A program made the translations under genes and the position numbers. Positions 5,743 to 64,000 of a stretch of 64,000 nucleotides of DNA are shown here, in pieces (position 1 is the first letter of the stretch; each line of letters opens with the position of its first letter). The DNA comes from Phorcus lineatus (Eukaryota; Mollusca; Gastropoda; Trochida; Trochidae): contig OV121081.1 of the NCBI GenBank assembly GCA_921293015.1, positions 48,881,877-48,945,876 on the forward strand, read 5' to 3'. The notes beneath the pieces are model-generated. The model saw nothing but the letters and a program-made list of their open reading frames with translations. It searched no databases and was not told the DNA's origin.

Positions 5743-5748
5743 TTATTG

Positions 5749-5908
5749 CAGGGATTGGGAAGGTAGGGGCCATGGGCTATTTTGCACACAGTGACAAAAT
5801 GGCCCATTAAAATTAGAAATTATACCAATGCTACAAAGGGGATTGGCTAAAAGATGACTAAAAGCCTTAAAAATTGTCCCATGTCAAAGGGGTCTTTCCG
5901 CATTCCTG
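5749..5908 (-). mobile_element. MITE copy 2, CAGGGATT family
   Basis: 160 bp, reverse orientation relative to 609-782. Ends CAGGGATTGGGAA and CGCATTCCTG; flanked by TTATTG at 5743-5748 and 5909-5914. Shared inner segments include GGCCCAT and GCTACAA blocks. The clear flanking duplication supports a genuine insertion. Confidence 0.8.
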
Positions 5909-6361
5909 TTATTGTTATCAAAGAAATATAAGTCTCATAGAAAAGTATAAAAACAAGATGTTTGAGTGACCACCTTTTAAGTTAGGTGTTGTTGCAGCTG
6001 TTTCAGAGATTAAATCTCAACAACAGTTGCCATGTCACGGTGTTATAGACTAATAATGAAAGAAGAGTGGAAACAGCTTGAGCTTTAGCTTCTCAATCTT
6101 TAAAGCCAGTTTGTCATATAATGTAGGGGATCAAATGCTGTCACGTTGCCAAAGTAGCACTTGAATGAAATAATTTCAATTGCTAGTATAGTTGTAAGTC
6201 AGTTTTTGAAAATTGGGAAAGGATAGACAGTGGCAATAAACAACATGAATTTTTGTATTCGAATGCCCACATTAAACCATAGCTAACCTTGAGATTAAGT
6301 GGGCTGTAAGTTTAATTAAATATTAATTATTCAGGTAGTCTATAGTTGTCATCCAATATTA

Positions 6362-42454: not shown

Positions 42455-42458
42455 TTAA

Positions 42459-42787
42459 AGAGCCACTCCGTGAGTTGTTGGAGTCTTATATGCCAAACTT
42501 AATCAATGGTCAATTTAATTTGATCGCGAAGTAACGACTGTTACCAACATTTTTTTAAAGCTTTTTGGTTTTTTACAATGACAATATGAAGGTAGAACGT
42601 CGCAATTATGATCGAAAAGCGGACAGTGGAGCGCGTTTAATAGTCAAAAGTAATTTTGGAGACTTATCTGAAACAGCCAGGAGGGCAGTTAGGAGTTCAT
42701 AGTGTTAGTTAGGTTATATAGTGTTAGTAAGGTTATGTAACTAGTATCCATGTATACGTATTTGTTCAGGTATGTCCTTTTTAGCTA
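42459..42787 (+). mobile_element. AGAGCCACTC MITE, 3'-truncated copy
   Basis: TTAA at 42455-42458, then AGAGCCACTCCGTGAG. Matches the full copy at 60134-60579 through GTTGTTGGAGTC, TCGCGAAGTA, CGCAATTATGATCGAAA and ACTAGTATCCATGTA, with a short extra repeat near 42710-42735. It ends where the GGCCGGAAAAGGCC element begins. Confidence 0.75.
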
Positions 42788-42960
42788 TTTAGGCCGGAAA
42801 AGGCCGACGGGCTCATGGCATGATAAGACGTCAAGTGTCCGTCCTTCCATAAACGGTTTTTTTTTACTTGTTCTCAAACACCACTAACCCTACGAATTCG
42901 AACTCTTGTGTAAAGACTGATTGCTAATAAGAATTCTCATTTATAGTTTTGGTGACTCTG
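42788..42960 (+). repeat. Hairpin-plus-GTCCGTCC repeat fragment
   Basis: GGCCGGAAAAGGCC hairpin, GGGCTCATGGCATG and TGTCCGTCC form the 5'-end arrangement of a tandem-monomer-like element. It seems to have cut the MITE at 42459. The 3' boundary is not clear. Confidence 0.45.
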
Positions 42961-43533
42961 TGGCCCCTATTAAAGACTAAATCATTCTCGCTTTCTCTAG
43001 AATCAAATGGCCTGGGATCTGATTTCCGGTGTACATATTACTGATCGTAACATAGATAATAGAGTTTGTCCCCGATCTTAAAACGGTCTTAGGGAATTTT
43101 TCCCCTTTCGCTTCCTTCTCTAGAAGTGAAATGTTCTTGATATGTGAAATCGTGTGTTCAGACTCCTTAGCTAATTTGGATAAAAAATAAATACTGATTA
43201 AAACAAAAGCATCGAACGTCTTCCCTGACATATTTCGAACTATATATTTTGAAGCTTTCCACCTCTCGGGCTAAACAAAAATGAATTTCTAAAAAGAAAA
43301 TCAAGAGAATTTATTTCACTTGTGAGAAAGGTCATACAACTGAAACCTTTTAGACCAGACTAGGAATTATAAAATAGATTTGATGATCACCTGGCCTCGG
43401 ATAAGGGACACACAAAAACATTACGCTTCTTTAACTGATGTTTTACTCCCAACCTTCATCTATATCAAGTACTGTGCTGTAAGCAACTGAATCATCCTAC
43501 CTTCAACAAGTTGTTCAGTGTATCAAGAAACAA
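42961..43533. other. No gene recognised
   Basis: An 84-codon minus-strand open frame (42977-43231) lacks recognisable features. Nothing else is seen. Confidence 0.45.
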
Positions 43534-44212
43534 GCATGGATACGGGTAAAAATAAAAATGCAAAGAAGTTGAAAACCCCAAAAGGCACATCTCCGCATGA
43601 TTCCCGTTGCACATACCAAATTTCGTCGAGATAGGTCTCACCGTTTTGGAGTTGTGCTCCGGAAACGAAATCCTACATTTCATTTCCATGGAAACGGGTA
43701 AAAATAAAAATGCAAAGAAGTTGAAAACCCCAAAAGGCACATCTCCGCATGATGCCCGTTGCACATACCAAGTTTCGTCGAGATAGGTCTCACCGTTTTG
43801 GAGTTGTGCTCCGGAAACAAAATCCTATGTTACGTTTCCATGGATACGGGTAAAAATTAAAATGCAAAGAAGTTGAAAATCCGAAAAGGCACATCTCCGC
43901 ATGATGCCCGTTGCACATACCAAGTTTCGTCGAGATAGGTCTAACCATTTTGGAGTTGTGCTCCGGAAACAAAATCTTATGTTACGTTTCCATGGATACA
44001 GTTAAAAATAAAAATGAAAAGAAGTTGAAAACCCCAAAAAGGCACATCTCCGCATGATGCCCGTTGCACATACCAAGTTTTGTCGAGATAGGTCTCACCG
44101 TTTTGGAGTTGAGCTCCGGAAACATTATCGGGACGGACGGACGAACGGAAGGACGGACGGACGGGCGGAGACCATTTCAATATGCCCCGCCAACTACGTT
44201 GGGGCGGGGGAT
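43534..44212 (-). mobile_element. Tandem-monomer element, minus strand: four ~153-bp monomers, ACGG repeat, hairpin
   Basis: CATGGAAACGGGTAAAAAT-type starts recur at 43534, 43687, 43839 and 43991 (152-153 bp). They are followed by a GACGGACGG microsatellite (44129-44166) and the hairpin CCCCGCC ... GGGGCGGGGG at 44185-44210. Read on the minus strand this is hairpin, GTCC microsatellite, monomers: the same plan as 13336-15660. The monomers share AAAAGGCACATCT and TGCTCCGGA with that element, so the two are diverged relatives. Confidence 0.75.
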
Positions 44213-44469
44213 AAAAAGCAACCATTTTATGGGCATGGTCATGAGGGAGATATTCATTTACTTAATTCAACAGGTGCGCTCATCATGGAAAACATGCAAC
44301 TAGTTCTCCAACGCGTGAACGAGTTGACACAGACTGTGGTCGCGTTGTCGAGTCCCAACACGTTGTAGACCTGTACATTGTTGTAGATGATAATGTACTT
44401 AATGAACAATTGGAAATGAATTAAATAGTTTCTTTTTCAAGTACCTCCTGACACTTTTCAACAACTCGA

Positions 44470-44720
44470 GAATAATTTAGTCAAACGAACTAGTTGTACA
44501 AAATAAAAACGCGTTCTAGATATTTAGAACTATTTCCAGGAAGATTTAACTTGTTCTCATTCAGTTGCAAAGTTGCGATCAGCTTCCGTACGAAAAGCAT
44601 TACTACATTATGCAACAAAATGGTTCTTCATAAAGAAAATGTGTGTTAAACAACTCGGTAACAAGTTCTTGAGTGGTGATCGAGTTGTTGAAAACTTGAC
44701 CGAGTATGCGTATCATCAGT
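44470..44720 (+). repeat. Fragment of the AACNNGTT unit (left-arm orientation)
   Basis: AACGAACTAGTTGTAC, AACGCGTTCTAGATATTT and, further on, GATCGAGTTGTTGAAAAC parallel 47477-47720 and 54790-55130 in the same order. Confidence 0.6.
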
Positions 44721-47459
44721 TTGAACTTTATTTCATCCCTAAAGACTATACTGTCCATTTGCAAAGGTTTTTTTAGAGATTTATTTTAATCTTTATTACC
44801 ATGGTGGAAAAAAGAAAAAAACTTCTTGTCAAGGTCACTGCATTTAAAGAACAACTACTTGAGTATTACTCAAGATGAACATAGTGCAAATCTCCATTTT
44901 ATTCTCCATCTGTTCGTTGTGTATATATCCTTGATGTCATCCGCTAAAACCAACTCAGTAAGCACGAGGACCCCTCGAATAAAACAGCGTGAACGACATG
45001 TCACTAGTAGAGGAAATGAGGAACACGTTCTGCAAAGCGTGAACTAGTTGATGCAAGTTTGAACGCTACGCCTCGGAGACCCACGATTCAAACAGGAGGT
45101 GTATTGAGCGATACAACTCGGGAAGTGTGGGTATATCTAATACAAGTTGTATGTATGTTATAATTGGACTTTGACAGATGGAAACCACTTGTACATTTTG
45201 TAGATCTATTTGTTAGTTGTTGAGTACGTGGAATGAGTTGTATATGTGTGATTTAGTGAGTTGAAGCACAGGATGAGACGTAGAATTTATATATTTGTGC
45301 ATGTTAAGAGTGCGGAACGCGTTATACAAGCGTGATTTAGTTGTAGGGAGTGATAGCATATATCGAGTTGAACAAAGGTATAAATGTTGAAGATATGTGA
45401 ATTAGTATAAATAACGGCAAACTAGTTGTATATTTTTTATTTAGTTGTTGGCTTATCTTCAAGTTCTAAAAGTTGGATCTGCATGTTGTGAGTGCGAATA
45501 GCGTTGTAGACGTGTTATTAAGGTGTTGAAAGCATAGACTTTTTTGCATGTTCGAGGGTTATTAAGTTGTGAACGATTTGTAGAAATTTGAGTAAGTTGT
45601 TGCCTCAGCATTTGTGTACGTTATCGTGTACGTAAAAGGAGTTGTTTGAGAGAGATTTAATTGTAGAAAGCCTGGACATGATGTAAAGATGTGATTTAGT
45701 TTTCGAGAGCGTTGAACAACTTGTTCAAGTGATATTTAGTTGTTGGCTGAACATCGGCTCAGTGTATTTTTGAGGTCTTGCGATATTGCACCAAAATTAA
45801 ACTTAACTAAAACACATGAAGGAATTACCAAACACTGACGTGCATGTATCATGTTCATCACCCTGTATAGGGCAGCGAAGCCGAATTCCAACTGTATTGT
45901 TTTATATCATTGAAAAATTCAATAAACATAGCTTTTGAAGTTAAAGATTTCAAAAATGTAAATAATAGAAATATTGCAAGAGTGTGAAATAATCCCACAT
46001 AACTTTTGCCAAGCAATGATTGATTCAGCGCGAGTTACCGTATTTTGATGTGATGTGACGATTATTCATGACGCCACTATTACGGGTCGTCGAATACACA
46101 CGCGGTTGAAATAGAATAGAATCGGTATTAAGAAGTTATTACCCTCGGAAGTGTATCATATGACACTTACGAATCTCTTTCAAATGTGTATATAACCCGA
46201 GCGTGAATAAAAAAAATCTCACTCGTTTCGTAAAAATCTTACAACACACCTCCTCGGGTAATAATCTCTATATATTTAAGTAGCTCAAGAGTTACATTAA
46301 AAGGCTACTCCGAACGGAGAATAAGCATTTAAAATGGACGACATAAAATAATTTCTTCAATTTTAAATTTTAATAAAACCCGGAAAATAGTCTTAGGAAA
46401 GAAATCTTTGGTTTACATTTATCTCGACGCATGTCTACCTACATGTCGATATATCCTTTCAACTGCAATAAAACCTATACGTTTTTGTGACTTGGGTACA
46501 TGAGTTTTCCGTTCTGCAACGGAAACAAATTTCCTGGATGTGTTTCTATGCGAACGGAAACCAAAATATAGGTTTCATTAAATGAAATTTCCAAAAGGCT
46601 CAGCCACAAATTATCATTGTTCAATATGTTAATTTAACTAGGCCTTATGGTTTTATAGTTGAGAAAAGCTGAGACGGAGATAATTTAAATATGACCTGTC
46701 AGATTCGCTGTGTCTGGGGATGAAAAGTATAAGGACTTATATCCGTCACCAAATTCTTTTATGATAATCCTCATCAGGTAAGAACTCTGTACAGGCCTTT
46801 TGCTTCTGGAGCAGAAGATGAAAAAGACCCCGTAGAACATGGGATGAGAGTTATCAATATTGACCGAATAAATCCCACTAACGTTACCCAACGTAAAGAA
46901 GTGTATAACTCTAAAAACGAAACAATGCAATTTTCAATTTCTCCTGTGCCCTAAACTGTTGAACTAATTGAGCGAGACGATGAACAAGTCCAGAAAGGCA
47001 TGAACTAGTTGCTGAAAGTCCGGAAAATCCCATTGTTGATTTTAGCTGGTAAAAAGCAAATTTTGCAAACACTCTTTGAATTTTAGATATCGCTACTATT
47101 TATCAAATCATTTATTTTATGTTTTGAGAAGAAAATATAAGTATAACAAATCGAAAAGAGCTGCTGAATTTACATTTTCTTTTAATTCAAAAGAATCATC
47201 AAAGAATGGTAAGCTGTAACAATCAACAATACATTATTACTACAGTCACCCCGAAAAGTGCAACGGTGTTAAGATTCAACAAGAAACAAAAAGTTCACCA
47301 CATGTGCTCTCGTAAAATCGCGTTGAGGACTCGGAAGAATGTGAGCAAAGTTTGAATATTAATGACCACAGTAGGATAAAATAAGTTATTCCTTTCATAA
47401 GACATGTTTTATTTGTTTAAGAAATACGTTGGAACCTACCTTGTTGTTTTAAACAGACA

Positions 47460-47740
47460 TAGCTGACGACGTTGCGAACTAGTTGTAAAAAGTCATAGCG
47501 CGTTCTAGACATTTACAACTAGTTCTCGACATATCGAACTAGTTCTCCGAACATCTAACGAGTTGTGGATTTGTTGAAACCATTTGTTATAAACTTTGTA
47601 ATCATTAAGGAGAAATGATTCTTATTTAGTTTGATCTCATTAAAACTCGTGAACTAGTTGTATAGCGCTGATCGAGTTGTTGAAAAGTTTATCGAGTTGT
47701 ATCAGTGCGAACTGCCTTATACTTTGAAAGTCTTAACACG
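47460..47740 (+). repeat. Fragment of the AACNNGTT unit with five motifs at exact 20-bp steps
   Basis: GTTGCGAACTAGTTGTAAAA, AGCGCGTTCTAGAC, then three more motifs to 47564. CTCGTGAACTAGTTGTAT and GATCGAGTTGTTGAAAAG follow. Same orientation as 54790-55130. Confidence 0.7.
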
Positions 47741-47989
47741 ATGATCCAATAAACATCTCTCTAGTTCATTAAGTTACCTTAAATAATTCAGATCTGTTTT
47801 GGTAATTAGTTTAAGATTTAGATCTCGAACTTAACTTTTTTTTACTAGTCCTGAGTGAATGAATTCGAATCTATTATTTTAGCGTTCAATTGTTTTTTGA
47901 ACAATCATGTATCTACAATATCAATTCAGCATAAGAATTGCTTTTTATACTGTTCTTGATCAAAATCGTCACCAGAGAAAGAAGTTACT

Positions 47990-48370
47990 CTCAGCTTCTA
48001 ACAAAAGCAAGTTGTGAAAAACGTTTAACGCGTTGGATCGCGTTGTGGACTGTTTGTGATCAAGTTTTTGAGAGTTTCAAACGATTTGAACAAGTGTCAT
48101 TTTCTTGTTCAGTCCAAGGAACTAGTTTTACAAATAACTTTAAAATGTTCAATATGTGTAAGTCATTAAATGTTAGATAATTTAGTCAACGTCAACTCAG
48201 GGGCTCGATAGTTACTTCTAAGACAAATGAAACATGATTGATTGATTTAAATATGCAATACGACCAGAGGTAGAACTCGTTCCGACTTTTCAACAACTAG
48301 TTCACAACTAGTTCACGCTCTCGCCGAACTAGTTGAACTGTTGTAGGACAAAAGAAGAAGTGTATCACTG
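47990..48370 (+). repeat. Two rearranged fragments of the AACNNGTT unit (right-arm orientation)
   Basis: 48050-48175 follows 60010-60130 (GATCAAGT ... TTCAGTCCAAGGAACTAG). 48220-48360 follows 58340-58870 and 51640-51790 (ACAAATGAAACAT, CTCTCGCCGAACTAGTTGAA, GGACAAAAG). Their order is swapped relative to the right arm, so rearrangement occurred. Confidence 0.6.
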
Positions 48371-48969
48371 AAATCAAGTGGGAGGGCTAATGAAAGCAAC
48401 CTTAAATGTTGTTGAACAGTTGCCGTTTTCAAGATAGAAAAAATAACTATCAGTCGTTGAAAATTCAGTCACTATCCCACTTTTATTGTGAAACATCAGG
48501 AGGTATTTCCATGCAAAGTCCATTTTCCTGCACTTTGTTCCGCGTGACGTCAATATGAAACTATATGTTCAACAAAATGATTACAAAAAGATAACTTATA
48601 TTATCTCACGAACAATCGGTCGTAAACATAGGATGTAAACATTCCATCATGATCACCGTCATTTTGTCTCTTGAATAATAACAATTGAATTGCGCTTTTA
48701 AAAACAATAGGTTAATTACAGCCAATGAAACAATGGAGTAACAGTTCACGTCCATTGCGCTTTTCCGTTTATAATCAACGCATTTTCATCTTTATTTGAA
48801 TTTTCTCGTGAAAAAGACCTCGACCCAATCACATTCATTTCAGCACACTACAGTTGAATTTTTATTATCTTCTGAGCATTTTTTAACGCCTCAGTGAAAG
48901 TTTTGTACAACGTTGCCCACTATCTTGTTTTCGCACAAAATGTTAGCGGCACTAGGTATTCAGAGGGTA

Positions 48970-51960
48970 AATGGTAATTTAACAATTACGTTAATCCAAT
49001 GTGATAATTATATTCTTTATTCCTCCAACGGAGAGTTACAAAAACATGGACGTCTCTGTTTTGCGTTCTTAGTGGTTGTTTTTTCAACACGAGGGGTGTT
49101 AGGGTTTAAAATTTTGTCGTTAATTTAGAATCTACTTATAGGCTTCACTAAATCTTAAATGTTTTGAATTTGAAATATAACTTTAATCGAACGTAGCAAT
49201 TCTATCCACGCAACGATGTACGGCTAAAACAAAAGGAGAGCTACTTTGTCAATTTAAATCTTGTATTCGTCAGTGGGTGGAAAGGTACATAGAGACGCAT
49301 CTTAACAACGTCACGACTGGAACCCGAAGATTACAAACTCGTCCCGCTCCGAGAAAATTGATAGTCTATATCGATACGTTTTCACTTTGCCGTGGGAAGA
49401 TGGTAGAATTGAAGCACGTAGAATAGCCTTTCAATCACCTCGAAGCGAAAAAATGACAATCCCGAGCTTGGATGAAACCATTTCAACTTATTCCTACATA
49501 AAATTGAGATACGTCAATTAATTACAATTAACATTCTTTACTTAATTCCCTTTCTCTATAAAACGAAAATATTAACACATTTTGAGTGAAATGTTTCTAG
49601 TACATGTATTTACCTGCTTAGTAGCAGGTCAGAGCAAGTCCAAGCAACGCGTTCGCCAGTTGTGGAACTAGTTGTATTTTCGACAACACATTCGCAAGTT
49701 GAAGAACTAATTGAATTTTCAACTACAAGTTCGCCAGTTGTGGAACTAGTTCAATTTTTAACATCACGTTCTCCAGTTGAAGAACTAGTTAAATTTTCAA
49801 CAACACGTTCGCCAGTTGTAGAACTAGTTCAATTTTCAACAACACGTTCGCAAGTTGTAGAACTAGTTAAATTTTCAACAACACGTTCGCCAGTTGTAGA
49901 ACTAGTTCAATTTTCAAAAACACGTTCGTCAGTTGTAGAACTAGTTCAATTTTCAACAACACGTTCGCCAGTTTAACAACATGTTCCCCACTTTTTAAAC
50001 ATTTTTTTGTTATTAATAATGAAATTCAAACCATAAAACCATGTACATATTCTGCAAGGTTAAAGTATCATCCGGTAAAATATGATAAAATATTTTTTTA
50101 AAATTATTTGTGTCTCACCGAGGAACGAGTTCAACGTTTTTCAGTTTGATTTTCTCCTGATTCACGGCTGTGTTGTATCAAAAGACATACAGGTATTACA
50201 GTTTTCTATATTCACGTCATGTTTCCCAATCTTAGACACATGCAGTTTAATTCAACATGATAAAGCCTGACCCTAACTAGACCGTTTGTGTTGGAGAGCG
50301 TGTTTAAGTTTAGCACAACTTGTTTTGCTTACATGATGAAAAGTAGCGATATGAAAGTATTTCTGCAAACGAGTTTAATATGTCACAGGTAAGAAATATA
50401 TAAACCTTGTACCTTAAAAAATCATGACCGAATTTAGTCACTCGCGTTACAGTAGAAGGCAGTTCACACTGATACAACTCGGTCAACTTTTCAACAACTC
50501 AATTAGCGCTCGAGAACTAGTTCACGAGTTGATGTAATTAGAACTAGTTCACAAGTTGATGTGAATTTGACCAGACTTATAAAACTTTTGAAATACTAAT
50601 AGATAGTCAGTCTCTCTTGGAATTAATACATGCAAAATTCGGAAACACCTCCATAAATAGTACGAGTGACATTGATGAATAAACTCGATACATTTCAACA
50701 TTACCTGCATCACATTCGCAATTGTTAAACCAGTTCGAGTTTTTCATGAACGCGTTTCAAGTTGTGGAACTAGTTACAATATCGTTTTGCCATATGATCT
50801 TTGGAATATCTTAATCACATTTATAAAGCAAGGTTTATATCCTCTACATGTGAAATAATTTTGTATTGTCACAGCTTATATTTAATCAACAAAGATTTCA
50901 CACATTGTGGAACAAGTTTCACAATAAACGAGCTTGTTCCAACACACACTGTCTCGATTGTCTTCACCGGATTTCGCGGACAGCCCATACTTGAAGACGC
51001 AAGTGCTACATTTTTCTATTTTATTACAGGTATACCTCTATAATCCCTAAACAAACTCTACAACCCGACCTGGCCTACATCGACTACTTCACCATTGATG
51101 AACGCGTTTCACGTTTTGCACGTTTTTATGAGGAGCAGAACTCTATATTGCAATTTGTTCAATGTGAAAGTTTTTCTGATGACGAAAAGAGGAAATAACC
51201 TGTTAATTTGTTATTTTTTTCTAAACAACCTTTGAAGCTACAATATTCTTCATAATACTGATTTTTGTAATCGAAATTATTCACTCGATATTAGTATAAA
51301 TAGTAAAGTAAATAGTAATATTACTAGTAATAATAGTAAAATAAAGTAGAATATTTATCTTTCATGTTGGAATCGTTCACTTAATGGGACCGAGATCTTA
51401 AATATGTTTCTAATGCAATATTTTCGGTGGTTTGAATAAATCAATTGGGTAAACAAACAATTTTACACTAGACAAACTCGGTTATGTATCACTTGGACTC
51501 GTATAAGGATTGAACTAGTTCAACATGTCTAGAACTAGTTGTAAATGTCTTGAACGTGTTCTGACTTTTTACAACTAGTTCGCAAGATCTTCAACTCATT
51601 CCGAATTTGACAACTATGTACATACAGGTTTCGTGTTATTTCATAGACAAAACAAACATACTACCCAATACTACCCACCAGAGGCAGAAGTCATACCGTC
51701 TTTTCAACAACTGGTTCAAGTCTTGCGAACTAGTTCATCCTCTCGCCGAACTAGTTGAACAGTTGCAGGACAAAAGGAGAGGAGTATTATACGGAATTTA
51801 ACTTTACTTCCCGACTCGGTTTTCGACTTTAAATAGGATCACGTACATGTTTTTGCTTAAATATTCTATCAATATGCATTGCTGTCAAGTCATTTTCGTA
51901 ATGAAATAAGAATTAGGTTTGTTTAAACACAATACAAAGTACCAACATGTTACTTATTTT
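48970..51960 (+). repeat. Third copy of the unit, direct relative to the right arm
   Basis: Shared landmarks with 56880-58980, in order: GGGGTGT-AGG-TTT (49093), GCACGTAGAAT (49418), GGTCAGAGCAAGTCCAAGCA (49627), the CACGTTCGCCAGTTGT array, CATATTCTGCAA-GTTAAA (50047), GCGATATGAAAGTATTT (50346), ACAACTCGGTCAACT (50475) and TTTTACAACTAGTTCGCAA (51566). It shows that the unit exists independently of the palindrome. Confidence 0.75.
49646..49986 (+). repeat. 39-bp tandem array alternating AACACGTTC and GAACTAGTTC
   Basis: About eight units built as AACACGTTCGCCAGTTGTAG + AACTAGTTCAATTTTCAAC, so motif starts alternate 20 and 19 bp apart (49646, 49666, 49685, 49705 ...). The unit is divisible by three, so long frames stay open on both strands. 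Related shorter arrays are at 57495-57680 and, inverted, at 55640-55880. Confidence 0.9.
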
Positions 51961-52384
51961 AATATTTACAAATATTGTTTTAGGATCAGAACTGAATTAA
52001 TATGATGTTTAGGTCATTGAATCGAGGTATATTGACAAAACGTTATGTTTAATTTTTATGGTTTTTTTTTTGAATTTCAATGTTCAAACGTTATCGTTTC
52101 CTTGGGAACAAAGATTTTCGATTACCACATAGATCTAATTATCACAAGCCTTTATTATAAAAACTTTGCATGTTGTTTACAAAATGTCATCATGGAAAAA
52201 CATATAATAATTTTAAAAAGGACCTAATTTTTATATAAAATCCCATCTCAGAGATTTAAAACCTAATGCATAAATGCATAATTGAAAATGTTTCAATACA
52301 TGTAAATATGAAATATTCAAATTAGCATTCCTTGAATGTTATATAATTATTCCGGGATGTTAGTACATAGCCACGGTGCGCCCG

Positions 52385-52541
52385 CGCGGTTAGGAGCGAG
52401 ATTGCCCAGTGGTGAGAGCGTTACGCCTTGGATCAGAAGGTCCGTGGCGCATCCCACAATGGTGATGCGGGCTTTCTCCCTGGATATTACTGCAGCCGCG
52501 CTACAAGTGAAATAATCTTGAAAGCGGCGATAAACACCAAT
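52385..52541 (+). mobile_element. SINE, internally deleted copy
   Basis: tRNA-like head GATTGCCCAGTGGTGAGAGC with a B-box-like region near 52440, then GGTGATGCGGGCTTTCTCCC and the tail GCAGCCGCGCTACAAGTGAAA with AAGCGGCGATAAACACC. The middle body of the 3843 copy is missing. Confidence 0.7.
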
Positions 52542-53162
52542 GCACGCGCAGTGAGATCTACATTCCTTACTAAGCTAAAATAATTCTTCCAAACGCACAT
52601 ATTTCATAACGTCATTTGAAACGTGCTGAACCTAATGTATGCGTGACAAAAATGTGAACAAATTACATTTGCTTATGTACTTGCACTCCACTCCAGCCAT
52701 ACTCCTCTAAACTAGGTCATACCCAGAGAAAAAAGAAATGAAAGAAACTTAAACTTCATATATCATAAATGTCATGTCATCTTGCTGTGTTCAGTGCAGT
52801 AAGAAATCGACTGATTCAAATAATAAAATGAGAGGACAGATAGGGTTAATTGACAAAGATAGTAAAATGACTCACATTGAACGACTTCGTCTCGACATAC
52901 TTTTTTTTCACTATAAGTCGAACTGGGCTTTTTATGCAATAACCGATTAGGCCCAAAAGCTTTCACCACAGGTCGACTAGAAATGTTTGCTTTTATAGCA
53001 TCAGTCCTTTTCGATAAATATGCTCTATAAAATCGGTGAAATAATAATGATTTTAGAAACTTGCTGAACACGCCAATAACAATTAAGGCTGAATCCTGAA
53101 TAACAAAAGAATTCATTTATAGAGCGCCTATATCATGGTCAAGCCAAAAGAGCCCAAACTTG

Positions 53163-53231
53163 TTTCCATATAATAGCAGCCGCGATATAAGTGAAAAACT
53201 CTTGAAAGCGGCGTTAAACCTCACCTCACAT
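53163..53231 (+). mobile_element. SINE 3' end
   Basis: ATAGCAGCCGCGATATAAG, CTCTTGAAAGCGGCGTTAAA and CACCTCACATCACATC match the family tail. It abuts the outer end of the left inverted arm at 53232. Confidence 0.75.
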
Positions 53232-56150
53232 CACATCTACAACTCGTCCCGTTCAGATAATTATATCTCGTTAAAAACCACCAGCAACTAAATAACTTAA
53301 AACTTATTATCTAACAGTTTGTTTTACACATTTGACAACTATTTGTAAAACTCGTTCCTTATATTAAAGAACAAAATGATACATGTTCAACTCGTTCGAA
53401 AATCTCAACAACTTGACCACATTTCTTTACTTTTGAATCCGACTTGTTGTACCCCTTAAAGCCTTTCGACAACATGATCACAATTGCGCAATGAGTCCAA
53501 CGCTCCGAAAAACGTATACAAATCGTCTCGACCATACACTAATGAAATAATACGTTTATAAATCCGCCAACTTCATTAACAACAATCTCTACCACGGTCC
53601 ACACAGAAAAAAATATAAAAAACATCTTGCACATCTAGTTCCTAACCCACAGCATTTCAATAATGTTCCACGTTAAAACGTTCACGGGTGCAGCGAACAA
53701 CTAGATTGCGCTTCGTTCCAAAACATTTACGTCAACTATCCTCATCACGTTTTCACGATAGTTTTCGTCGTTTTAATCCTGCAACTGATGAACTCGTTGT
53801 GCGAGAAGACGAACTTGTTGAGGCCTGAGAAAGAGTGGGCGCGTTGAAAGAGTTCTCTAATTCGTAGTGCTTCCGATGCCGTGACATGCATTTCCATAAA
53901 TGAAATGGTGACCTGATAAGCAGAGGTTGAATGAATTAAATAACTTCCGTATGAAGTGATACATGAATACTAAGGAAGTTAATTTGCGCACCCCTCATGT
54001 TACCATACTCAATTGACACAAACAAAACAGCGGGCTAAAATGTTTACAATTAAATTGCATTCTCATCATGGTACGACACCTTTTTTATGTTGACATACAT
54101 GACAATTTCATGAAAATTGGCTTCTGCATTAAGCTTCAGCATCATATTTAATCTAACAGAATCAAACGCACTGAGCCTTTAAAATCTTGACAAATTGTAC
54201 ATGTACTTATCAAAAAGGCTATCAGTACTTGAAGGTCGGTTCCGAATATATATTTGCGGAAAACTCGACACGCGTTGATTAGTCGGAACGCTTTGTACAT
54301 TTTGGGAGAGAAATATGACTTCCATTCAGCAACGAATTGCCTTGAAAAGGATAGAAATTGTTATCTCTCTCACAGCCGTGGACTAGTTCGCCAAAAGTGA
54401 AATCCTTAGTTGTAAAGAGGGTGAAACTAGTTCTCAAATTCTGGTCGTATTGAAGATTTCACTCGGTTAAGATGTTCAAATGATAAAAACTTGCACACTG
54501 ATGTTTATAAAAACAACTTTTTAGCAGTGTTGAGAAAAATTGTAAATTACTACGATGGAAAAAGTCAAAGATATTACAAAGATATATTGAAAGGTTCAAC
54601 AGTAGCTGCAAATAGTCACAGCTGCTACAGACTTTGAAATGTGCGAGGACTCGACACGCTGTGAACACATTATTGTTACATACATGTACATGTTTAATGC
54701 ATTTTTAAACAATCATCGAATGACTTATTGATCAAATACTTTTCATCTCTCTGAAAAATACCCTGCAACCAATCCTGTCTTCCAAAATGGAAAAACTTTA
54801 GATATTGCGAACTAGATGTACAAATCCGGAACACGTTCAAACTTTGGTGAACTAGTTCTCAACATATGGAACTACTTCATCAAGGCTCGCGCATATTTGG
54901 AATCGTTTTTCAGTTCAAGCAGACCAAAACGGGTTCGCTTTTGTTTGAAATGGTTCAACATTATGGCAAAATAACATATTTGATAAAAATTGCCATCAGC
55001 ACAAACGTTAGCAGACACTTTTTAACTTTGGTCTCAATACAAAATTTACATCAACTCGTGAACTAGTTCTAGAGCGCTGATCGAGTTGTTGAAAAGTTGA
55101 CCAAGTTGTAATAGTGTGAACTGTTTATTTATAGCAAATGACCAGATTCAAATTCATACCTTTTCAAGGTATTAGCTATATTAAGATTTTATGCATCTTC
55201 GATTATAAGTACAAATTTACCCGTGACAATTCAAACTCGGTAGAAATACTTTCATATCGCTGCGTTTCACATTGTAATCAAGTTTTGGAAAAGTTAAACA
55301 AGTTCTCTTCAAACAGAACTAGTTGACTTAGGCTTGATAATGTTGAGTTGGACTGTTAGGAAGATTTGCAAACAATACGTTAACATTGAGCTGTAATACA
55401 TGTATCTCTTTCATTACAGGAGACTCGTAAAATCAGGGTGAAAAAGAATCTACACAATTTCTGTTGAACGATCAAGCCCTATAAACGTGGAACTCGTTCC
55501 TCTGTGGGACAAATAGTTGTTGATTTTATTACATTTTGCCGGATGATACTTTAACGTTGCAGAGTACGTACCTGGCTTTATGATTTGAAATTTATTATTC
55601 GTAAGATGTACCAGTTAAAAAATGTGGAAGTATAGTTGTTTTACTGGCGAACGTGTTGCGAAAAGAAATGAAGTAGTTCTTCAACTGGTGAACGCGTTGT
55701 TGGAAAAGGATGAACTAGTTCAACAGCTGGCGAACGTGTTGCAGGAAGTTAGAACTAGTTCATCGCAGGGGAACCGAACTAGTTCTTTAAAAGGAGAATC
55801 TGTTCCCATAGGTTGGAACTTATCTTACAACTGATGACCGTGTTGGAAGGAATGTTGAACTGGTTGTGTAACAGGCGAACGTTGTGAAGTAGACTGGCTC
55901 TGACTTATGTGAATAAAGGGAAGGGGTGAAATTTAACCAAAACGTGTTGATTGTTTCTTAATTATAGAATTGTATAGTGAGTTAAGTAAAGAAAGTTAAT
56001 TGAAATTAATAGAGGTATGTCCATTTTATGTAGGAATGAGCTTAAATGGATTCATCCATACTCGTGCATTGACATTTGTTTCGCTTCGAGATGTCATTGA
56101 AAGGTAACTCTACGCGCTTCAATCAATTATACATGATCTTTTAGGACTAG
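53232..56150 (+). repeat. Left arm of a ~2.9-kb inverted repeat
   Basis: Its reverse complement aligns with 57225-60640 throughout. Paired landmarks: CAACTCGTCCCG (53237) with 60610; CACAACGAGTTCATCAGTTG (complement, 53780-53800) with 59620; ATTGCGAACTAGATGTACAA (54804) with 58290; TCATATCGCTGC (55250) with 57850; CTTTATGATTTGAAA (55575) with 57690; the array at 55640 with 57495; ATTGAAAGGTAA (56096) with 57265. Divergence is moderate, with many small indels. Confidence 0.85.
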
Positions 56151-57224
56151 TTGTAATTGTGTACAACTCTGTACAACCAGTCCGTCTTATCTAACCACCT
56201 TCGTGTTTCATTACAAATATTTGGAGTTGTGCGCCTCGCAAATGAAATATCTTATGCATGCTTTGTTTGAAAGCCGCGTTTCTTGCGATTGTCTTATACG
56301 TGTTCGAACTCGAACGCGATCAAAGCCTGTGTCAACTAGTTCATGCGATGTATAAGTAGTTGCACCTTTCTACATCGGGCGTATGTATCACAGGTGATTT
56401 TCATCCGCATTTTGACTTTTCGTGCACAAATTGAAGCTCTGTGAATATTTTACCTATTTAGGATTCATACATTCTAATTGTGACTCCAATGGATTATTTG
56501 GTAATTCAATCATCAAATCTAAATTATACAACCGATGAAGTGTTTTTCCATATGTTCGTCAGATGACTTGATGGTTTTGACAGCTTATGACTTTCACAAT
56601 TCGACAATGATATCAGGCCAAAAACATTGAGTTAAATTTTGTTATCATTTTTCAGATTATATTTTTCTGTTGAGGTGTTGTGGCATTGAAAAAGACTTAT
56701 GTAATAAAATGCAACAACCAGACAATATCAGATAAATCACACATGAATTCGCGTTCAAGAAGAGGGAATGTCTCAGTTTGATTATTGAGTCAAATAAGGC
56801 GAAAACCTAGAGGATTATGTACAGTCAGTTATTATGTACAGTTATTGTAGAATTTTGAAATGTTATGTGTTAATCCCATTAATTGTACGTTAACACAAGA
56901 TGATAATGTCACTGTATTGAATTTTAATGGATGATTTTTTCAAGATTCCACTGCTATTTTTTCCGCTTATCAGGGGTGTGAGGTTTTTAAAATTTCTTCC
57001 TTAATATAGGCTACACTCATAGCCTTCAAGGATGGTTAAGTCTAAAATGTCTTGAATTTGAAATTTAACTTTAGGGAATATGTGCCTTTTAAGCTTCGAA
57101 CAACCTCCCGATTGATGACGTAGAGATTATATCCACACGGCCGCGTGGACCTGACACATAAGGCGGGTTACTTTGTTCGTAAAATCTTCCGTTCGTCGGC
57201 TGGTGGGTAACGCGCGGAGATCAC

Positions 57225-60200
57225 GTCGAGGACATGTATAATTAATTTATTAAAGCACGTAGAATTACCTTTCAATCACATCGAAGAGAAAAAAATGCCA
57301 ATGCACGAACTTGGATTAATCCATTTCAACTTATTCTACATAAAATGGACATAGTTCAGTTAATTTCAATGAATATTATTTACTAAACTCAGTGTACATT
57401 TCGGTAAAAACGAAACAATCAACACATTTTGATTTAATTTCATCCCTTTCCTTAATTCCTTGCAGGTCAGAGTCAGTTAAGTTTAAGCAACACGTTCGCC
57501 ACTCGCCAGTTACACAGCTACATTTCTTCCTCCAACACGATCACCAGTTGTAGAAGTAGTTCTAACTTCCCGCAAACACTTTCGCCAGTTGTAGAACTAG
57601 TTAGATTTGTTCAACAACGCGTTCACCAGTTGTAGAACTAGTTCATCATTTTAGCAACACGTTCGCCAGGTATTTCTTACGAATGATGAATTTCAAATCA
57701 TAAAGCAAGGTACATATTCTGCAAAGTTAAAATATCATCCGCCAAAATGTATAAAATCAACAACTATTTGTCTCTCCGGGGAACGAGTTACACGTTTTTT
57801 AGCTTGATTGTTCAACAAAATCTTGTTTTGATTACAAGATGAAATGCAGCGATATGAAAGTATTTTCTTCTACAAAGTTTGATTTGTCAGAGGTGAATTT
57901 GTAATTACTATTGAAGATGGGTGAGATTTTAATAAAGCTATTACCTTGGAAATTGATTAATTATTAATCTAGTCATTGGCTATCAATGAGAAGGCAGTTC
58001 ACACTGATACAACTCGGTCAACTCTTCAACAACTCGATCAGCGCTCTAGAACTAGTTCACGAGTTGATGTAAATTTGTAATGAAACTAAGTTTAAAAAGG
58101 ATCTGCTGACGTTATATTGATGACAAAATTAACAATAATGTTATTCTGTCATACTGTTGGACCATTTCAAATGAAATCGAACCCTTTTGGTCCGCTAGAA
58201 CTAAACAAAACGATTCCAAATAAGCAACGCGTTCAAGCGTTGATGAACTAGTTCTCCAAAGTTTGAACGTGTTCCGACTTTGTACAACTAGTTCGCAATA
58301 TCTAAAGGTTTTTTTCCATTTTAGAAGACACGATAGGTTGGAAGGTATTTTACAGACAAATGAAACATATTTGATCGATTATGCATTAGATGATTGTTTC
58401 AAAATACATGAGACATGTTAGTAACAAAAAAGGTTCACAGCGTGCAAGGTCATCGCGCATTCCAACGTGTGTAGCCGTTGTGACCTTTCTCAGGTACTGT
58501 TGAATCTTTATTTATATCTTTGACTTTTCAATCGTAGTAATTAAATTCTCGATTGCATGCCGGGTTTCAACAATATTATAACTAGTATATAAATTCACTT
58601 AAATAGTATATGGAATTAAAGAAGAAAATTTTATTTCTTTACATTTCTTTACATTTTTCAACTGCTACAAATATACTTTTTTAAACATTAGTATTATTTA
58701 GCTTTATGAGCGTGGGCAAGTTGCTATCATATGAATATCTTAACCACGTGAAATCTTCATTACGACCAGAATTTGAGAACTACTCCCACCCTCTTTGCAA
58801 CTAGTTCACGCTTTTGGCGAACTAGTTCATGGTCGCCCAACTAATCCACCGGTTGTGAGGCACAGAAATTTAACTTGAAATTTCATGGTTATTCAGATGC
58901 TACATTAGATAGTGTACATGTTTTTTTTTGTTTTTTTATTGTACTGCCATTTCATTTTCACAATAAGATAGGAAATAATTTATTGGAACATATTACATAG
59001 TACGCACGGTGTACAAAACCGGAAACTTAGTTGCATAATGATGTAAACATAGTGAATTACAGGTTATATTATGACAATAAATGAGGTTAGGAATTTCTTA
59101 TTCAGTTACAAATGGTTGTTTTGCTGTACTTCGTTTGATATTTCATTAAGAAATAGAAGACGAGTTGCTGTGCATCTATCGTTGAATAAAACATAGCAGG
59201 TAGCATAAAACACGACGGGTGTTCATTTCTGATTAACGTAGAATCCAATTTGCGTTTTATTCTTGGTTTTACCCATCACTAATCAGTCTGATTAATCAGA
59301 AGGGTGTTTATCAACATAAACCAGAAGTCTTAACATAATGAGGTTCAATACCATTTTACTTTAAACATTTAGCCAACTGTTCCGTTTGTGTCAATTGAAT
59401 ACGGTTACTTGAGGGATGAACAAATTTATTTAATTTCTAGATTATTCATTTATCACACGATATCACATGATATTCATGTAGTTTAACTTCAGTCATCTCT
59501 TATTATCAGATCTCCATATAATTTCTGGTACAAACATATATCGCGTCAAGAATTACAGAACTCTTTCCACGCGCAGATCAACTACTTCAGGCTTTTGTGA
59601 ACTTGTTCGTCGTCTCACACAACTAGTTCATCAGTTGCAGGATACAAATTTGAGACTTGAATGTAAACAATACAACATGTTGTTGAGAGGAAGTGTTAAT
59701 GATACACACGAGACGAAGCAGTAGTGTTTTCTAAAGGCGCAATCAAGCTCAATCTTTTGTTGTTGGATTCACCCGTGAAGCGGGAAAAGAAAAAAGTTCG
59801 TTCGTGCCAAGTTAGATTTCCTGAGTTATGTTAGCGTGGAACGCGTTGGTGGAAAATGATTTAGAAGCTGTGAGCAACGAACGAGATGTGCAAGTGTGGT
59901 TTAGTTTTTGAGTTTGTGGAGCGTGTTGGAGATCGGTTGAACGTTGAACGAGTTGTAAACGTACTATTTGATAAGAGGCTTGTATGGGTGAAACAAATCT
60001 GATTTTGTTGAAGGGAAAAATGTGATCAAGTCGTTTAGTTTCGAACGAGTTGAATAAGGGGCATTTTGATATTCAGTCCGAGGAATGAGTTTGACAAATG
60101 TAAATAAGTTGTATGAAAAGTGTTAGTTATTAAAGAGCCACTCCGTGAGTTGTTGGAGTCAAATATGGCAAATTAATCAATGGTGTCATTCGATCGCGAA

Positions 60201-60640
60201 GTATCGACTGTTACCAAAAAGTATCGTTTATAAGCTAATTGGTTTTGTACAGTGACAATACGAAGGGAGAAAGTCGCAATTATGATCGAAAGCCGGACAG
60301 TGGCGCGCGTCAAACAGCCAAACGTAATTTTAGAGGTCAGTTTGGTGTTGATAGTGTTTGTTAGTTTATATAACTAGTATCCATGTAAACTGAACGTGTG
60401 ATATCTGCCTCTGTGCATTTTTAAGGCTATTTTTAGATTTTCGTGGAAAACCAGTGTTTGCCATATATATGTCTTTTGGACATGAAAAATCAAGATGTTT
60501 TGATTCTATATCATAACATATTTCATTTTGGTTCGTAACAAAGGTGAATAATATTTTCTGAAAATCACTGAGTGGCTCTTTAAATTGCTGGTGGCCTGAT
60601 ACGAGATGTGAACGCGTGATTTACAGCTGTGAGATCCAAG
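57225..60640 (-). repeat. Right arm of the ~2.9-kb inverted repeat (interrupted by a MITE)
   Basis: Inverted partner of 53232-56150. Length is 3.4 kb including the 446-bp MITE, so about 2.96 kb without it, matching the left arm. The intervening loop (56151-57224) has a few isolated motifs such as GGACTAGTTGT and GTCAACTAGTTC. Confidence 0.85.
60134..60579 (+). mobile_element. AGAGCCACTC MITE, complete, TTAA target
   Basis: 446 bp with inverted ends AGAGCCACTCCGTGAG and TCACTGAGTGGCTCT, flanked by TTAA (60130-60133, 60580-60583). The left arm keeps the matching empty site near 53285-53300: its reverse complement GTTATTTAGTTGCTGG corresponds to GTTA-TTAA-ATTGCTGG. Non-coding. A truncated second copy is at 42459. 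Confidence 0.9.
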
Positions 60641-61180
60641 GGTAGAGTTATAGAAGGAAATGTTCATGTTTGCGCGTTATAGAACCTTGAGTTGGTTGTT
60701 AAAGACATTTGATTTGTTGAAGTTGTGATATCTCAAATCAAACATATTAAAAGTCATTATCTACCCCTCGTTTGATGACATATCCCTTTGATATTTCGCT
60801 TACACCTGTTTTGTCATCACGTATATAACATTGTAATTGTCTTCCAAATTCCAAGGGGGGGACGTCATAGCAAATAGCTTTATATAGACAGTCAGTTGTT
60901 CGACCGATTGACCCCTCTCACCCAGAGAGTGAAATCACCAAGTAGTTTAACGCTAAAATCTACTGAAACTAACACTTGCTAATAGTGTGCAACAAGAAAA
61001 CGCTTCGCATATATACAAACTTGCAGTTTACCGTCTACCAGTAGGTTAACAACTTACCTACAAAACATTCAGCACGATCTCAACAACTGCATCACATTTT
61101 TTCAAATCTTCAAACTTATTCTAACCTTACATTTTGCTGAATCATATGAAGAAATATAGAAATATATAGAAATATATTTT
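60641..61180. other. No gene recognised
   Basis: Outer flank of the right arm, with decayed GTTGT-type motifs to about 60720, then ordinary AT-rich sequence. The next clean motif cluster begins at 61185. Confidence 0.5.
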
Positions 61181-61292
61181 ATAGAAGTAGTTCTAATGTT
61201 TTAGAACGTGTTATCAAAATGTGAAACTAGTTCATTGGACATAACTTCGTTCTTGTTTTATAACAAACATTTGAAGTGACTGTGTCAACTCC

Positions 61293-62399
61293 TGTCACGG
61301 TGTAACGATATCTAAACTCAGGTGAGACCCGTTATCCGACAGGAAGATAATAAAAGAAAATAATCAGGCCAATAAATAACTAGAGAGAAGCCAATCCGTG
61401 AATCAAGTGATTTATTAGCAGTCAACACAAGACGATAACCGGGTACAGCAACAAGCTACCCGTAATCCACTCAACAGGAGTTAACAACTAATTAAGGAAG
61501 TCAACAACCCATGAATAAACAAATAGACAAACTGTAGGGAATCACTCAAATATACCCCCACACGTTGTAATAACAAGATAAGCTAATGGCCGTCTTAACG
61601 AAATAGCATTCATAAGACAAATCAACACTTGGCGAATATACAAAAGAAGGGAACGGGGCCCGGGTGACCTAACAATAGGGATGTATAAAAATCAAGCACA
61701 CAGTACTTTAGATTATCCCTAATCACTACTTGAGTGAGTAAATGAATAAGAACACTAGATAAGGTATAGTAGAACTTATCAAATAATTGGAGGGAAGGTA
61801 AGGTTAAAACTGTAAGTTCTTAAAGGAAGTGATCACATACTCCAGAAAGGTAAAGAGGAAATAAGGAATATCAACCTCACCAATTCACCTCCAACGTCCC
61901 AGGTCACCCGTGACCTCTCCCCGCAAGGATCAAGCCAGGACTACTGGTACCAGAGCTCGCTCGGCTAATTATTGGTTAAGTTCGGACGTCAGTGAAGACA
62001 AGGCCGAGGAGATGGTAGCTTATCTAAGGATATCGTGAATCTGTGTTTCTTTGCGAAACTAAACTATCCCTAGCTACATTAATAGTTAAGGTATGGAGCC
62101 CTACAATGGCTTATTGTAAAGGGAGTAAACTCCTCTACAAGAACATATAATATATATATATCATGAGTATTGGCATATAAATGCTACATGTAATAAGGCT
62201 GATAAATGGAGCATGAAAATGACATTTGAACATATAAAAATAGCCACAGTCGGCGAATAAAGACATGAATGATAAAAATAGATACATGAATGTAAAGTAC
62301 ATAATATGTACTTTCGATATATACAATAATTGATGATATTTTATGAAAGTACATTAGAGGAGAGGCGAGAAATAGGTCGCACGCTCGAACTGCGTGACA
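61293..62399 (-). mobile_element. Possible solo LTR, 1107 bp
   Basis: Begins TGTCACGGTGTAAC and ends CTGCGTGACA, so the TG...CA ends carry the inverted repeat TGTCACG/CGTGACA. On the minus strand a TATA-like run lies near 62150, and AATAAA (TTTATT at 61408-61413 on +) lies about 115 bases before the end, as in U3-R-U5. Flanks are AACTCC and AACTGA, not a clean duplication. It interrupts the AACNNGTT region and has no internal domain. A TIR transposon is an alternative. Confidence 0.4.
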
Positions 62400-62499
62400 A
62401 ACTGAAAGTTTAGCAGAGTTCATGCAAAACTAAGTTGTCACTCAGTATGTCTTTCCTTTTTTCATTTCCACGTGACTAGAAGGCGTTCGGACTCTACAA

Positions 62500-63230
62500 C
62501 GAGATTCAGGCCTACATTAACTCGTTCACGGGATGTAGAACAATTGCACGTTTTTCTCAACGAATCCTTTGGTCAAATGAGAATACCTTGTTTATTTTAA
62601 TCTGAATTGTGATTTCAGGCATATAGAATTAAAGTTCTAGTATTGAAAAGGGAATATGTTTAAAATGATACAGACGTGTTGTAAGATAATAACGTTAGAG
62701 GGTCTGGGACTGTTTTTTTCAAACTTAAACATATTTCCTTTCACCACATTAGATCTACAAAGAAGAGCACTACGAATGCAGCAGAAACTGATAAGGACAT
62801 TTTTATCACTCTCTCAGGTTGACCAGGTAAATTGAATTGGACCTTTCTCGCAACAAGTTCGCCTGTTATGCACCTAGTTCAACATTTCTTGTTACACATT
62901 AGCCATGCAGTTGCAGTAGGAGTTCGAATTTTTCAATTCGTTTATCGGTTATGTTACGAGTTCCTCGTTCTCTGCAACGCGTTCATCAGTTGTAAAACCA
63001 GTCCCCTTTTTTCCAACACATTTGCAAGACTTTTCAACATACTCACATTGTGGCACTACTTCCACGTTTATCGAAATAGTTCAATTTACATTGTCTCGAT
63101 TGTCTTCACCCTGAGTCACCGCTATAATTTGCTTGAAAGAATGAATGTAGTAACAGAAAACAGTTATTTATTTTAGAAACAGTTCATCAACTAGTTTAGC
63201 TTTGCTGGAACGCGTTCACATTTAGCATAA
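62500..63230 (+). repeat. Decayed AACNNGTT unit
   Basis: CAGGCCTACATTAACTCGTT (62508) parallels 51070 and 56320; CGCAACAAGTTCGCCTGTTA (62849) and GCAACGCGTTCATCAGTTGT (62977) parallel the 39-bp array; TGTCTCGATTGTCTTCACC (63091) recurs at 50949. Heavily mutated. Confidence 0.6.
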
Positions 63231-63599
63231 CATGTTTTTCTTCGAAGCTGAAAGCAGCTTCGCCATATTTCCGATGAGAAAGTATTCTCTGCTGACCATA
63301 CTGATTTCCATCGACACTATTTTGGAATTTTTCGATTTAACATCTATACAACGCTTTTCTATTATATGAACTGTTAACCGTGCTAATGAAACCTTTTTGA
63401 GAACTGGTTCTAACATTTTCAGAGCTTAGAGACCTATATAGGGGATTTCGTCTGTTGTTTCGGAGGTCTCTTGTTTTCTCATAATAACCTACCAGGAAGT
63501 TTTACATTGGACAGTCGAGGCATTTTTTCATATGTATGACCTACCCTGAGTGTGGAAGGTTTTTATATTTTCTTTTCCCCCATACTACAGTCTTTTGGA

Positions 63600-63690
63600 A
63601 AATTCAAAACTTGCAACCTTCCAAGGTGGATTCGAACCCCCAACCCTCTAAACCGTAAGCGAGCGCCCTAACCACTAGTCTTACGGGTCA
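63600..63690 (-). repeat. tRNA-like sequence, probably a SINE head
   Basis: On the minus strand: GTAAGACTAGTGGTTAGGGC (A-box-like), GCTCGCTTACGGTTTAGAG, then GGGTTCGAATCCACC, a perfect B box. Anticodon and acceptor stems do not pair convincingly, so it is not called a functional tRNA. Unlike the other SINE family in the window. Confidence 0.5.
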
Positions 63691-64000
63691 GACAGAATTC
63701 AAGGCTTAGTTTAACAATCTAATGATTGAGGTTAAATTTTCAATTTTAAAAAATCGGTCCAAAAGTTTTTTGATATCTAATCGCTCTTTAATTTCCATTT
63801 TTAAATGCATACAAACATTGATAAGTCATAAAAATAGTGGGACACCTTTTTACCTGCGATAAATTTATAGGATCCAAAAACGGTATCAACCACATGACTT
63901 GTCCATTGTAATTTGTACACCTTACGCCACGAAGAATGCTTTCCACGTGCATTTTGTGCCATGTCAATTACAAAGAGTAAATGTTTGCTTTAAGAGGAAA

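What the first reader, a model, noticed from the sequence alone, without database searches (positions are those of the whole stretch)
44213..63230. AACNNGTT motif repeated on a 20-bp grid over 19 kb
Seen: dozens of AACTAGTT, AACGCGTT, AACACGTT and AACTCGTT sites in clusters, with starts 20 bp apart (five in a row at 47477-47557; also 44298/44318, 45022/45042/45062, 61185/61205/61225). The filler between motifs is not conserved between clusters, yet motif and spacing are. Twenty bases is about two helical turns, so sites would face the same side of DNA, as in iterated protein-binding arrays. As 20 is not a multiple of three, coding cannot explain the grid. I know of no described family with this signature.
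Basis: partly seen in the sequence, partly recalled or inferred. Interest (0 to 1): 0.85.

Follow-up and report, generated by a model that had tools for sequence, protein, structure and literature searches.

The report
Giant non-coding transposon with motif arrays
The repeated 8-letter motif is real and belongs to a family of very large jumping DNA elements (about 36 to 76 kb); the copies read seem to carry no genes but are full of evenly spaced, probably protein-binding, sites.

Summary
In detail: 107 AACNNGTT sites in 44001-64000 against about 10 expected, with pair distances peaking at 20 bp (26 pairs, shuffles ~0). Some listed triplets contain a 5/6 or absent member. The region is not a free-standing array. 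It is the left 22 kb of a 36.9-kb DNA transposon (window 42080 to C1:48960820) with 23-bp terminal inverted repeats (TATCGAGCCCCTAAGGTGACATT) and a 6-bp target-site duplication (CATGAG). Genome-wide there are 11 inward-facing end pairs 35.9-76.3 kb apart; the 9 checked all have perfect 6-bp duplications. One insertion splits a mariner-like transposase frame. The two copies read whole hold 213 and 215 sites and no open frame over 141 aa. Sites lie at fixed places near the ends. Pieces of the array DNA, mostly 95-99% identical, also sit inside two elements with Polinton-type ends. On-grid neighbours keep the motif while filler is near-random, so motif and spacing look constrained, though other tests are weaker. 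Most likely they bind the transposase or another oligomeric protein. No transposase was found; terminal features fit IS3EU, but membership is unproven.

The parts
42080..64000 (+). Part of the giant transposon that lies in the window; the whole copy is C1:48923956-48960820 (36,865 bp) and continues 14,944 bp beyond the window
   Evidence: Inverted copy, mostly 96-99% identical, at C1:30176589-30217089 and terminal repeats at both ends
42074..42079 (.). Target-site duplication CATGAG, left side (right side at C1:48960821-48960826)
42080..42102 (+). Left terminal inverted repeat TATCGAGCCCCTAAGGTGACATT
   Evidence: 28 exact copies genome-wide, control 0
42107..42135 (.). Subterminal sites AACTAGTT (42107) and AACGCGTT (42128), 28 and 49 bp from the end
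43535..44124 (.). 152-bp tandem repeat (3.9 copies) inside the element; related repeats lie inside the copies at 3M, 30M and 41M and elsewhere in this copy
44298..45049 (.). Array clusters 44298-44364, 44488-44555, 45022-45049
47477..47698 (.). Array clusters 47477-47585 (6 grid sites, 4 exact) and 47652-47698
48188..48210 (-). Internal degenerate copy of the terminal repeat (3 mismatches); the same degenerate form lies inside three other paired elements and near an unpaired end on C32
49646..50005 (.). Main tandem block: 39-bp unit holding two sites, 19 grid sites, 14 exact
49092..51787 (+). Module A, homologous to B and C
53341..56129 (-). Module C, left arm of a large imperfect inverted repeat
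56972..60099 (+). Module B, right arm of the inverted repeat (axis about 56.7 kb)
51513..51756 (.). Array clusters 51513-51600 and 51709-51756
54830..55865 (.). Array clusters 54830-54955, 55061-55126, 55297-55324, 55650-55760, 55777-55865
57595..58293 (.). Array clusters 57595-57663 and 58226-58293
61205..63236 (.). Array clusters 61205-61232, 62976-63081, 63189-63236

Best explanation
Shown: the array region is the body of a 36.9-kb member of a family of giant DNA transposons (11 inward-facing end pairs, 35.9-76.3 kb) with 23-bp TA...TA terminal inverted repeats and 6-bp target-site duplications. The two copies read whole show no long open reading frame. Inferred: the elements are moved in trans by a transposase encoded elsewhere. 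The (G/C)AACNNGTT(G/C) decamers, placed about every two helical turns both next to the ends and throughout the interior, bind that transposase or a partner protein as a dimer per decamer. Neighbouring dimers then contact one another on one face of the DNA, building a nucleoprotein complex that brings distant ends together. I put the transposon at about 0.97, non-autonomous and non-coding at about 0.75, and arrays as binding sites of the mobilising machinery at about 0.4.
For: Ends and perfect 6-bp duplications in 9 of 9 exact pairs checked. Joined flanks of the 30M insertion, less one TCAAAG, read ...IVTQDETWVHHFDPDTKKQSKQWK..., an uninterrupted stretch that I recognise by eye (no domain search) as mariner transposase. 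Sites lie at the same offsets from the ends in the 9 elements: 28 (9 of 9) and 49 (8 of 9) at one kind of end; 53 and 73 (9 of 9) and 93 (8 of 9) at the other, for the window copy measured from its inner right end. Motif count is 213 in 36,796 bp and 215 in 40,502 bp. A position 20 bp from an exact site is again 6/6 in 20 of 96 on either side, against 0.5% background, while the filler of the 20 exact pairs is 35% identical against 30% at random: motif and step kept, filler saturated. Between duplicated modules identity is 0.906 for the core and 0.823 for filler. Against the older C7 relative divergence is core 19/192, filler 46/323, NN 12/64.
Against: No transposase was found; only 4 of the element's ORFs in the window went to Pfam, plus two from this copy's continuation, so an intron-split gene is not excluded. 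Only 2 of 11 end pairs were read whole inside. The constraint tests are uneven: masking the motifs during alignment removes the excess (core 0.806, filler 0.786); in the recent copies core and NN diverge about alike; in the module comparison NN (0.887) is nearly as conserved as the core; against the C7 relative core versus filler is p = 0.10. Permuted-pattern controls were matched by some patterns. Fixed end positions in recent copies reflect common descent, not independent selection. No binding data exist, and a host factor would explain the arrays as well.
Confidence: 0.6

Rival explanations
1. The arrays are binding sites for a host transcription or chromatin factor of palindromic-decamer type (p53/p63-like or Grainyhead-like), used by the element for expression or nuclear placement.
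For: GAACTAGTTC fits the p53 half-site RRRCWWGYYY (recalled); the centre is WW in 112 of 213 sites (counted).
Against: 101 of 213 centres are not WW; GC (33), GA (20), GT (16) and AC (13) centres are common; the Grainyhead core AACCGGTT (recalled) is nearly absent: 1 of 213 has a CG centre. No binding test was possible.
Confidence: 0.2
2. A selectively neutral, ancient 20-bp minisatellite that expanded and decayed inside a transposon.
For: Local homogenised blocks exist: a 39-bp unit at 49645-49973; pieces repeated at 162- and 243-bp steps in the 41M copy; filler two units apart is more alike (0.475, 8 triples) than adjacent filler (0.35). Masked alignment gave no clear core excess.
Against: Filler between adjacent exact sites is near random while the six core bases are intact, and neighbours are bimodal (intact or background).
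Confidence: 0.25
3. The arrays belong to a Polinton/Maverick lineage (virus-like element) as replication, packaging or partition sequence, and the TATCGAG elements are derivatives.
For: Array DNA mostly 95-99% identical lies inside a Polinton-type element with integrase, capsid-like and adenain-like genes at C1:3724621-3742014 (duplication TCAGTC) and inside a 24.1-kb element without such genes but with the same kind of ends at C1:41576846-41600931 (duplication CGTGAT); both classes make 6-bp duplications.
Against: The 190-bp Polinton-type end shows no AACNNGTT (read by eye) whereas the TATCGAG ends do; the 5,035-bp gene part of the 3M element has 1 site. The 15.0-kb member at C1:15593924-15608931, with a 99% identical integrase, has no strict array triple. 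None of the 102 integrase matches scored (of 902 candidates) falls inside the 11 TATCGAG pairs. The other nine Polinton-type pairs were not examined for arrays.
Confidence: 0.15

Closest known systems
IS3EU/GingerRoot DNA transposons
   Same: TA...TA termini and 6-bp target-site duplications (features as stated in PMC10045372, passages read)
   Different: No transposase found here; 36-76 kb; palindromic-decamer arrays throughout; I recall no IS3EU member of this kind
Polinton/Maverick elements
   Same: 6-bp target-site duplications; two Polinton-type elements in this genome carry the same array DNA
   Different: The window element has TA...TA instead of AG...CT ends (Polinton signature recalled), 23-bp instead of long terminal repeats, and no integrase, polymerase, capsid or protease ORF seen
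Foldback-type transposons with short repeats in their arms (recalled: Drosophila FB, sea urchin TU)
   Same: Short repeated sites near the ends and large internal inverted repeats
   Different: Terminal repeat here is 23 bp and not made of the repeats; the big inverted repeat is internal and only 68-84% alike
Giant eukaryotic transposons (Teratorn, giant Helitrons; PMC6431247, passages read)
   Same: Size class and tendency to carry extra DNA
   Different: Those carry genes; the two copies read here appear gene-free

Membership tests
[quoted passage not shown]
   9 of 9 exact pairs with perfect 6-bp duplications; two further pairs not checked
IS3EU/GingerRoot | TA...TA termini | tested here: met
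   TATCGAG...CTCGATA
IS3EU/GingerRoot | 6-bp target-site duplication | tested here: met
IS3EU/GingerRoot | IS3EU-type DDE transposase | tested here: inconclusive
   Longest frame 141 aa in the window copy; no Pfam match above cut-off for the six ORFs of it that were scanned; an autonomous partner was not located
Polinton/Maverick | AG...CT termini with long inverted repeats (recalled) | tested here: not met
   Window element TATCGAG, 23 bp; met by the neighbouring class at 3M and 41M
Polinton/Maverick | Integrase, PolB, capsid, protease genes | tested here: not met
   No frame long enough in the window or 30M copies; none of 102 scored integrase matches inside the 11 pairs; PolB, capsid and protease were not searched for one by one
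Satellite or minisatellite DNA | Whole unit, filler included, repeated head to tail | tested here: not met
   Only 49645-49994 and a few arrays of about two to three copies among the motif clusters; adjacent filler 35% identical
p53-type response element array | RRRCWWGYYY half-sites (recalled) | tested here: inconclusive
   WW centre in 112 of 213 sites

The most novel reading that the evidence does not exclude
A new kind of giant, gene-free transposon whose mobility depends on a phased array of decamer sites spread over its whole length, used as a nucleoprotein scaffold to bring ends 36-76 kb apart together; the same array DNA also gets into virus-like Polintons, which could spread it further.
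Probability: 0.2. Interest if true: 0.85.

Novelty: new variant of a known kind. Interest (0 to 1): 0.62.

Why it matters
Non-autonomous DNA transposons are usually short, and large DNA transposons usually carry genes (general knowledge). A family that is very long and, in the copies read, gene-free, with clean insertions, raises the question of how ends tens of kilobases apart are synapsed, and offers a concrete candidate: phased palindromic sites. Because nearly identical array DNA occurs in two element classes, it also gives a natural case of DNA exchange between a DNA transposon and Polinton-type elements.

Tried and rejected
Coding explanation: no Pfam match for 9 of 10 long window ORFs (4 of the 10 lie in the element); the tenth is the 39-bp tandem read and gave four families, all below their curated cut-offs. 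RNA family or tRNA: none at gathering threshold. Prokaryotic or viral relatives: pattern scans of viral contigs gave 6, 11 and 12 stretches (28 distinct). I inspected the 6: short tandem runs with repeated filler or few units, and nothing like this element. The 22 further ones were not inspected. blastn against phages gave only short pieces, best listed E 0.03. The search for related loci with the capsid-like ORF found nothing in viral contigs.

Selection tests that did not support constraint: masked alignment and recent copies. My first versions counted motifs intact in both copies twice, which overstates conservation; searches use the union of sites instead. In one search the permuted-pattern control was equalled or beaten by 8 of 46, 51 of 168, 19 of 75 and 5 of 19 patterns in the four comparisons, and six of 33 null patterns had an intact fraction at least as high, so those controls are not decisive.

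Literature: ten searches. Among the titles and abstract starts listed I saw none that describes a giant transposon with AACNNGTT arrays; the lists are capped (364 papers hold the letters AACTAGTT, 30 listed), only open-licence PMC papers are held, and I read passages of three papers only (PMC10045372, PMC12730594, PMC6431247).
Full report
Observation. AACNNGTT is tenfold enriched in 44001-64000 (107 against a shuffle mean of 10.5) and not in 1-44000 (15 against 15.7); 20 bp is the leading pair distance, with 40 and 39 next. Leaving out the main tandem block, 20 pairs at 20 bp and 9 at 21 bp remain. The extended consensus is mostly (G/C)AAC(T/G/A)(A/C/T)GTT(C/G), with TA the commonest centre (88 of 213 in the whole copy).

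What it sits in. Self-comparison shows duplicated modules in both orientations, among them a large imperfect inverted repeat about 53.3-60.1 kb with axis near 56.7 kb. In the host genome (957.8 Mb, 74 contigs; window at C1:48881877-48945876) the strict triple AACNNGTT-N12-AACNNGTT-N12-AACNNGTT occurs 490 times against 9 for the reversed control. The listing shows only the first places, all on C1 up to 41.59 Mb, and these fall at four loci near 3.73, 25.63, 30.18-30.21 and 41.58 Mb. The window copy matches the 30M locus along its length, mostly at 96-99% identity.

Ends and insertion. Both copies end in TATCGAGCCCCTAAGGTGACATT, facing inward. The window copy is flanked by CATGAG on both sides, the 30M copy by TCAAAG. 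The window copy has a 70-bp repeat of its left end joined outside its usual right end. The 30M copy interrupts a frame that I recognise by eye as mariner transposase and that reads on across the joined flanks. Exact matches to the repeat number 28 (13 forward, 15 reverse; control 0), giving nine inward-facing pairs of 35.9-76.3 kb. The seven pairs beyond these two also have perfect 6-bp duplications: GGAATA, ATTAAC, AATATG, ATAGAT, GATAGC, ATTATC, GTTATT. With up to 3 mismatches there are 43 matches and two more pairs, 44.1 and 38.4 kb, whose duplications I did not check. The only shorter inward combinations in that list (5.4-7.2 kb) pair an outer end with an internal degenerate end carrying 3 mismatches, seen in five places including window 48188-48210.

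Content. The window copy has 213 sites in 36,796 bp and the 30M copy 215 in 40,502 bp. The longest stop-to-stop frame is 141 aa in the window copy and 128 aa in the 30M copy, read in 10-kb stretches, so that frames across borders are cut. No start-to-stop ORF of 150 aa or more was listed in L033, L034, L038, L039 or L048; L034, of the 41M element, has stop-to-stop array reads of 269 and 157 aa. Not all ORFs were scanned for domains, and 9 of 11 end pairs were not read inside, so 'gene-free' is firm only for two copies and only against unspliced genes. The array sites begin close to the termini: 28 and 49 bp from one end, 53, 73 and 93 bp from the other.

Are motif and spacing constrained? Positions 20 bp from an exact site are either intact (6/6 in 20 of 96 on each side, 5/6 in 11 of 96 on each side) or near background, while the 10-bp filler of adjacent exact sites (20 pairs) is 35% identical against 30% for random pairs. 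That is hard to get from neutral decay of a tandem repeat. Between modules identity is core 0.906, filler 0.823, NN 0.887 over 53 sites (core against filler p = 0.0005; the rows are related, so p is only a guide). Against the older C7 relative (L077, C7:6897563-6907562; 32 sites, 16 intact in both) divergence is core 0.099, filler 0.142, NN 0.188, overall 0.149 (core against overall p = 0.03, filler p = 0.10, NN p = 0.05). Against this, masked alignment shows no clear excess and recent copies show core and NN about alike (for example 9/1260 and 3/420 against the 30M copy).

Link to Polintons. At C1:3724621-3742014 there is a 17.4-kb element with 190-bp AGTAGTGTATG... terminal repeats and duplication TCAGTC. 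It carries an rve-plus-chromodomain integrase and a Peptidase_C5 protease (Pfam) and a 469-aa ORF related to mollusc 'F54H12.2-like' proteins (best named match Haliotis asinina, 62% identity over 72%; that this name marks Maverick capsid proteins is recalled). Its other 12.4 kb include array DNA (46 sites; the 5.0-kb gene part has 1). At C1:41576846-41600931 a 24.1-kb element with the same kind of ends (arms about 696 bp) and duplication CGTGAT holds 154 sites, and I saw no Polinton gene in it. Twelve inward pairs of these ends exist. One of them, C1:15593924-15608931, has a 99% identical integrase but no strict array triple; nine others were not examined. So at least one member of this Polinton family lacks the arrays; capture is the simpler reading, with the direction inferred from the sites at the TATCGAG ends.

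Mechanism. The element moves as a DNA transposon; this is shown by ends, duplications and an interrupted gene. Superfamily: TA...TA ends with 6-bp duplications are what PMC10045372 states for IS3EU (passages); without a transposase this is a lead. The arrays are most likely cis-acting sites for the mobilising machinery or a partner that must span tens of kilobases; this is inference. A host factor or a passive minisatellite origin remain possible.

Organism. Not named by any tool. Relatives of the Polinton capsid-like ORF and repeats that look mollusc-like from memory suggest a mollusc; this is inference.

Noticed in passing
L047 (C1:3720001-3730000) 5432-9525; C1:3724621-3742014: Polinton/Maverick-type element with integrase, capsid-like and adenain-like ORFs; no PolB seen among its frames. 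Seven integrase copies genome-wide are 99-100% identical and open over 406 aa.
   Followed up: partly
L046/L043 (C1:25617660-25628099): ORFs that look Polinton-like by eye (no Pfam hit for the five scanned), with a Gypsy-like stretch between them (also by eye), directly beside an older array copy whose end reads AATCGAGCCCCTGAGG.
   Followed up: partly
L077 1557-1967 (C7:6899119-6899529): 137-aa frame in the older C7 relative that by eye resembles a transposase C-terminus (TNNHLEGWH); no Pfam match and the genome search with it did not complete.
   Followed up: partly
C1:48960728-48960820: The window copy has two right ends: a 70-bp copy of its left end capping the usual right end, as if an end had been replaced or added.
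   Followed up: partly
window 13419-15612: Block of tandem repeats with periods of 117, 265 and about 162-170 bp, unrelated to the arrays.
   Followed up: no
window 52454-52535 and 53168-53237: SINE-like stretches inside the element that also match places elsewhere in the window; the SINE label is by eye.
   Followed up: no
C5:8988525-9064818: 76-kb end pair, twice the size of the window copy; may hold a nested insertion or genes; could not be fetched.
   Followed up: no
L034 3695-4975 (41M copy): Expansion of an array piece with matches repeating every 81 bp or multiples, giving open frames of 269 and 157 aa.
   Followed up: no
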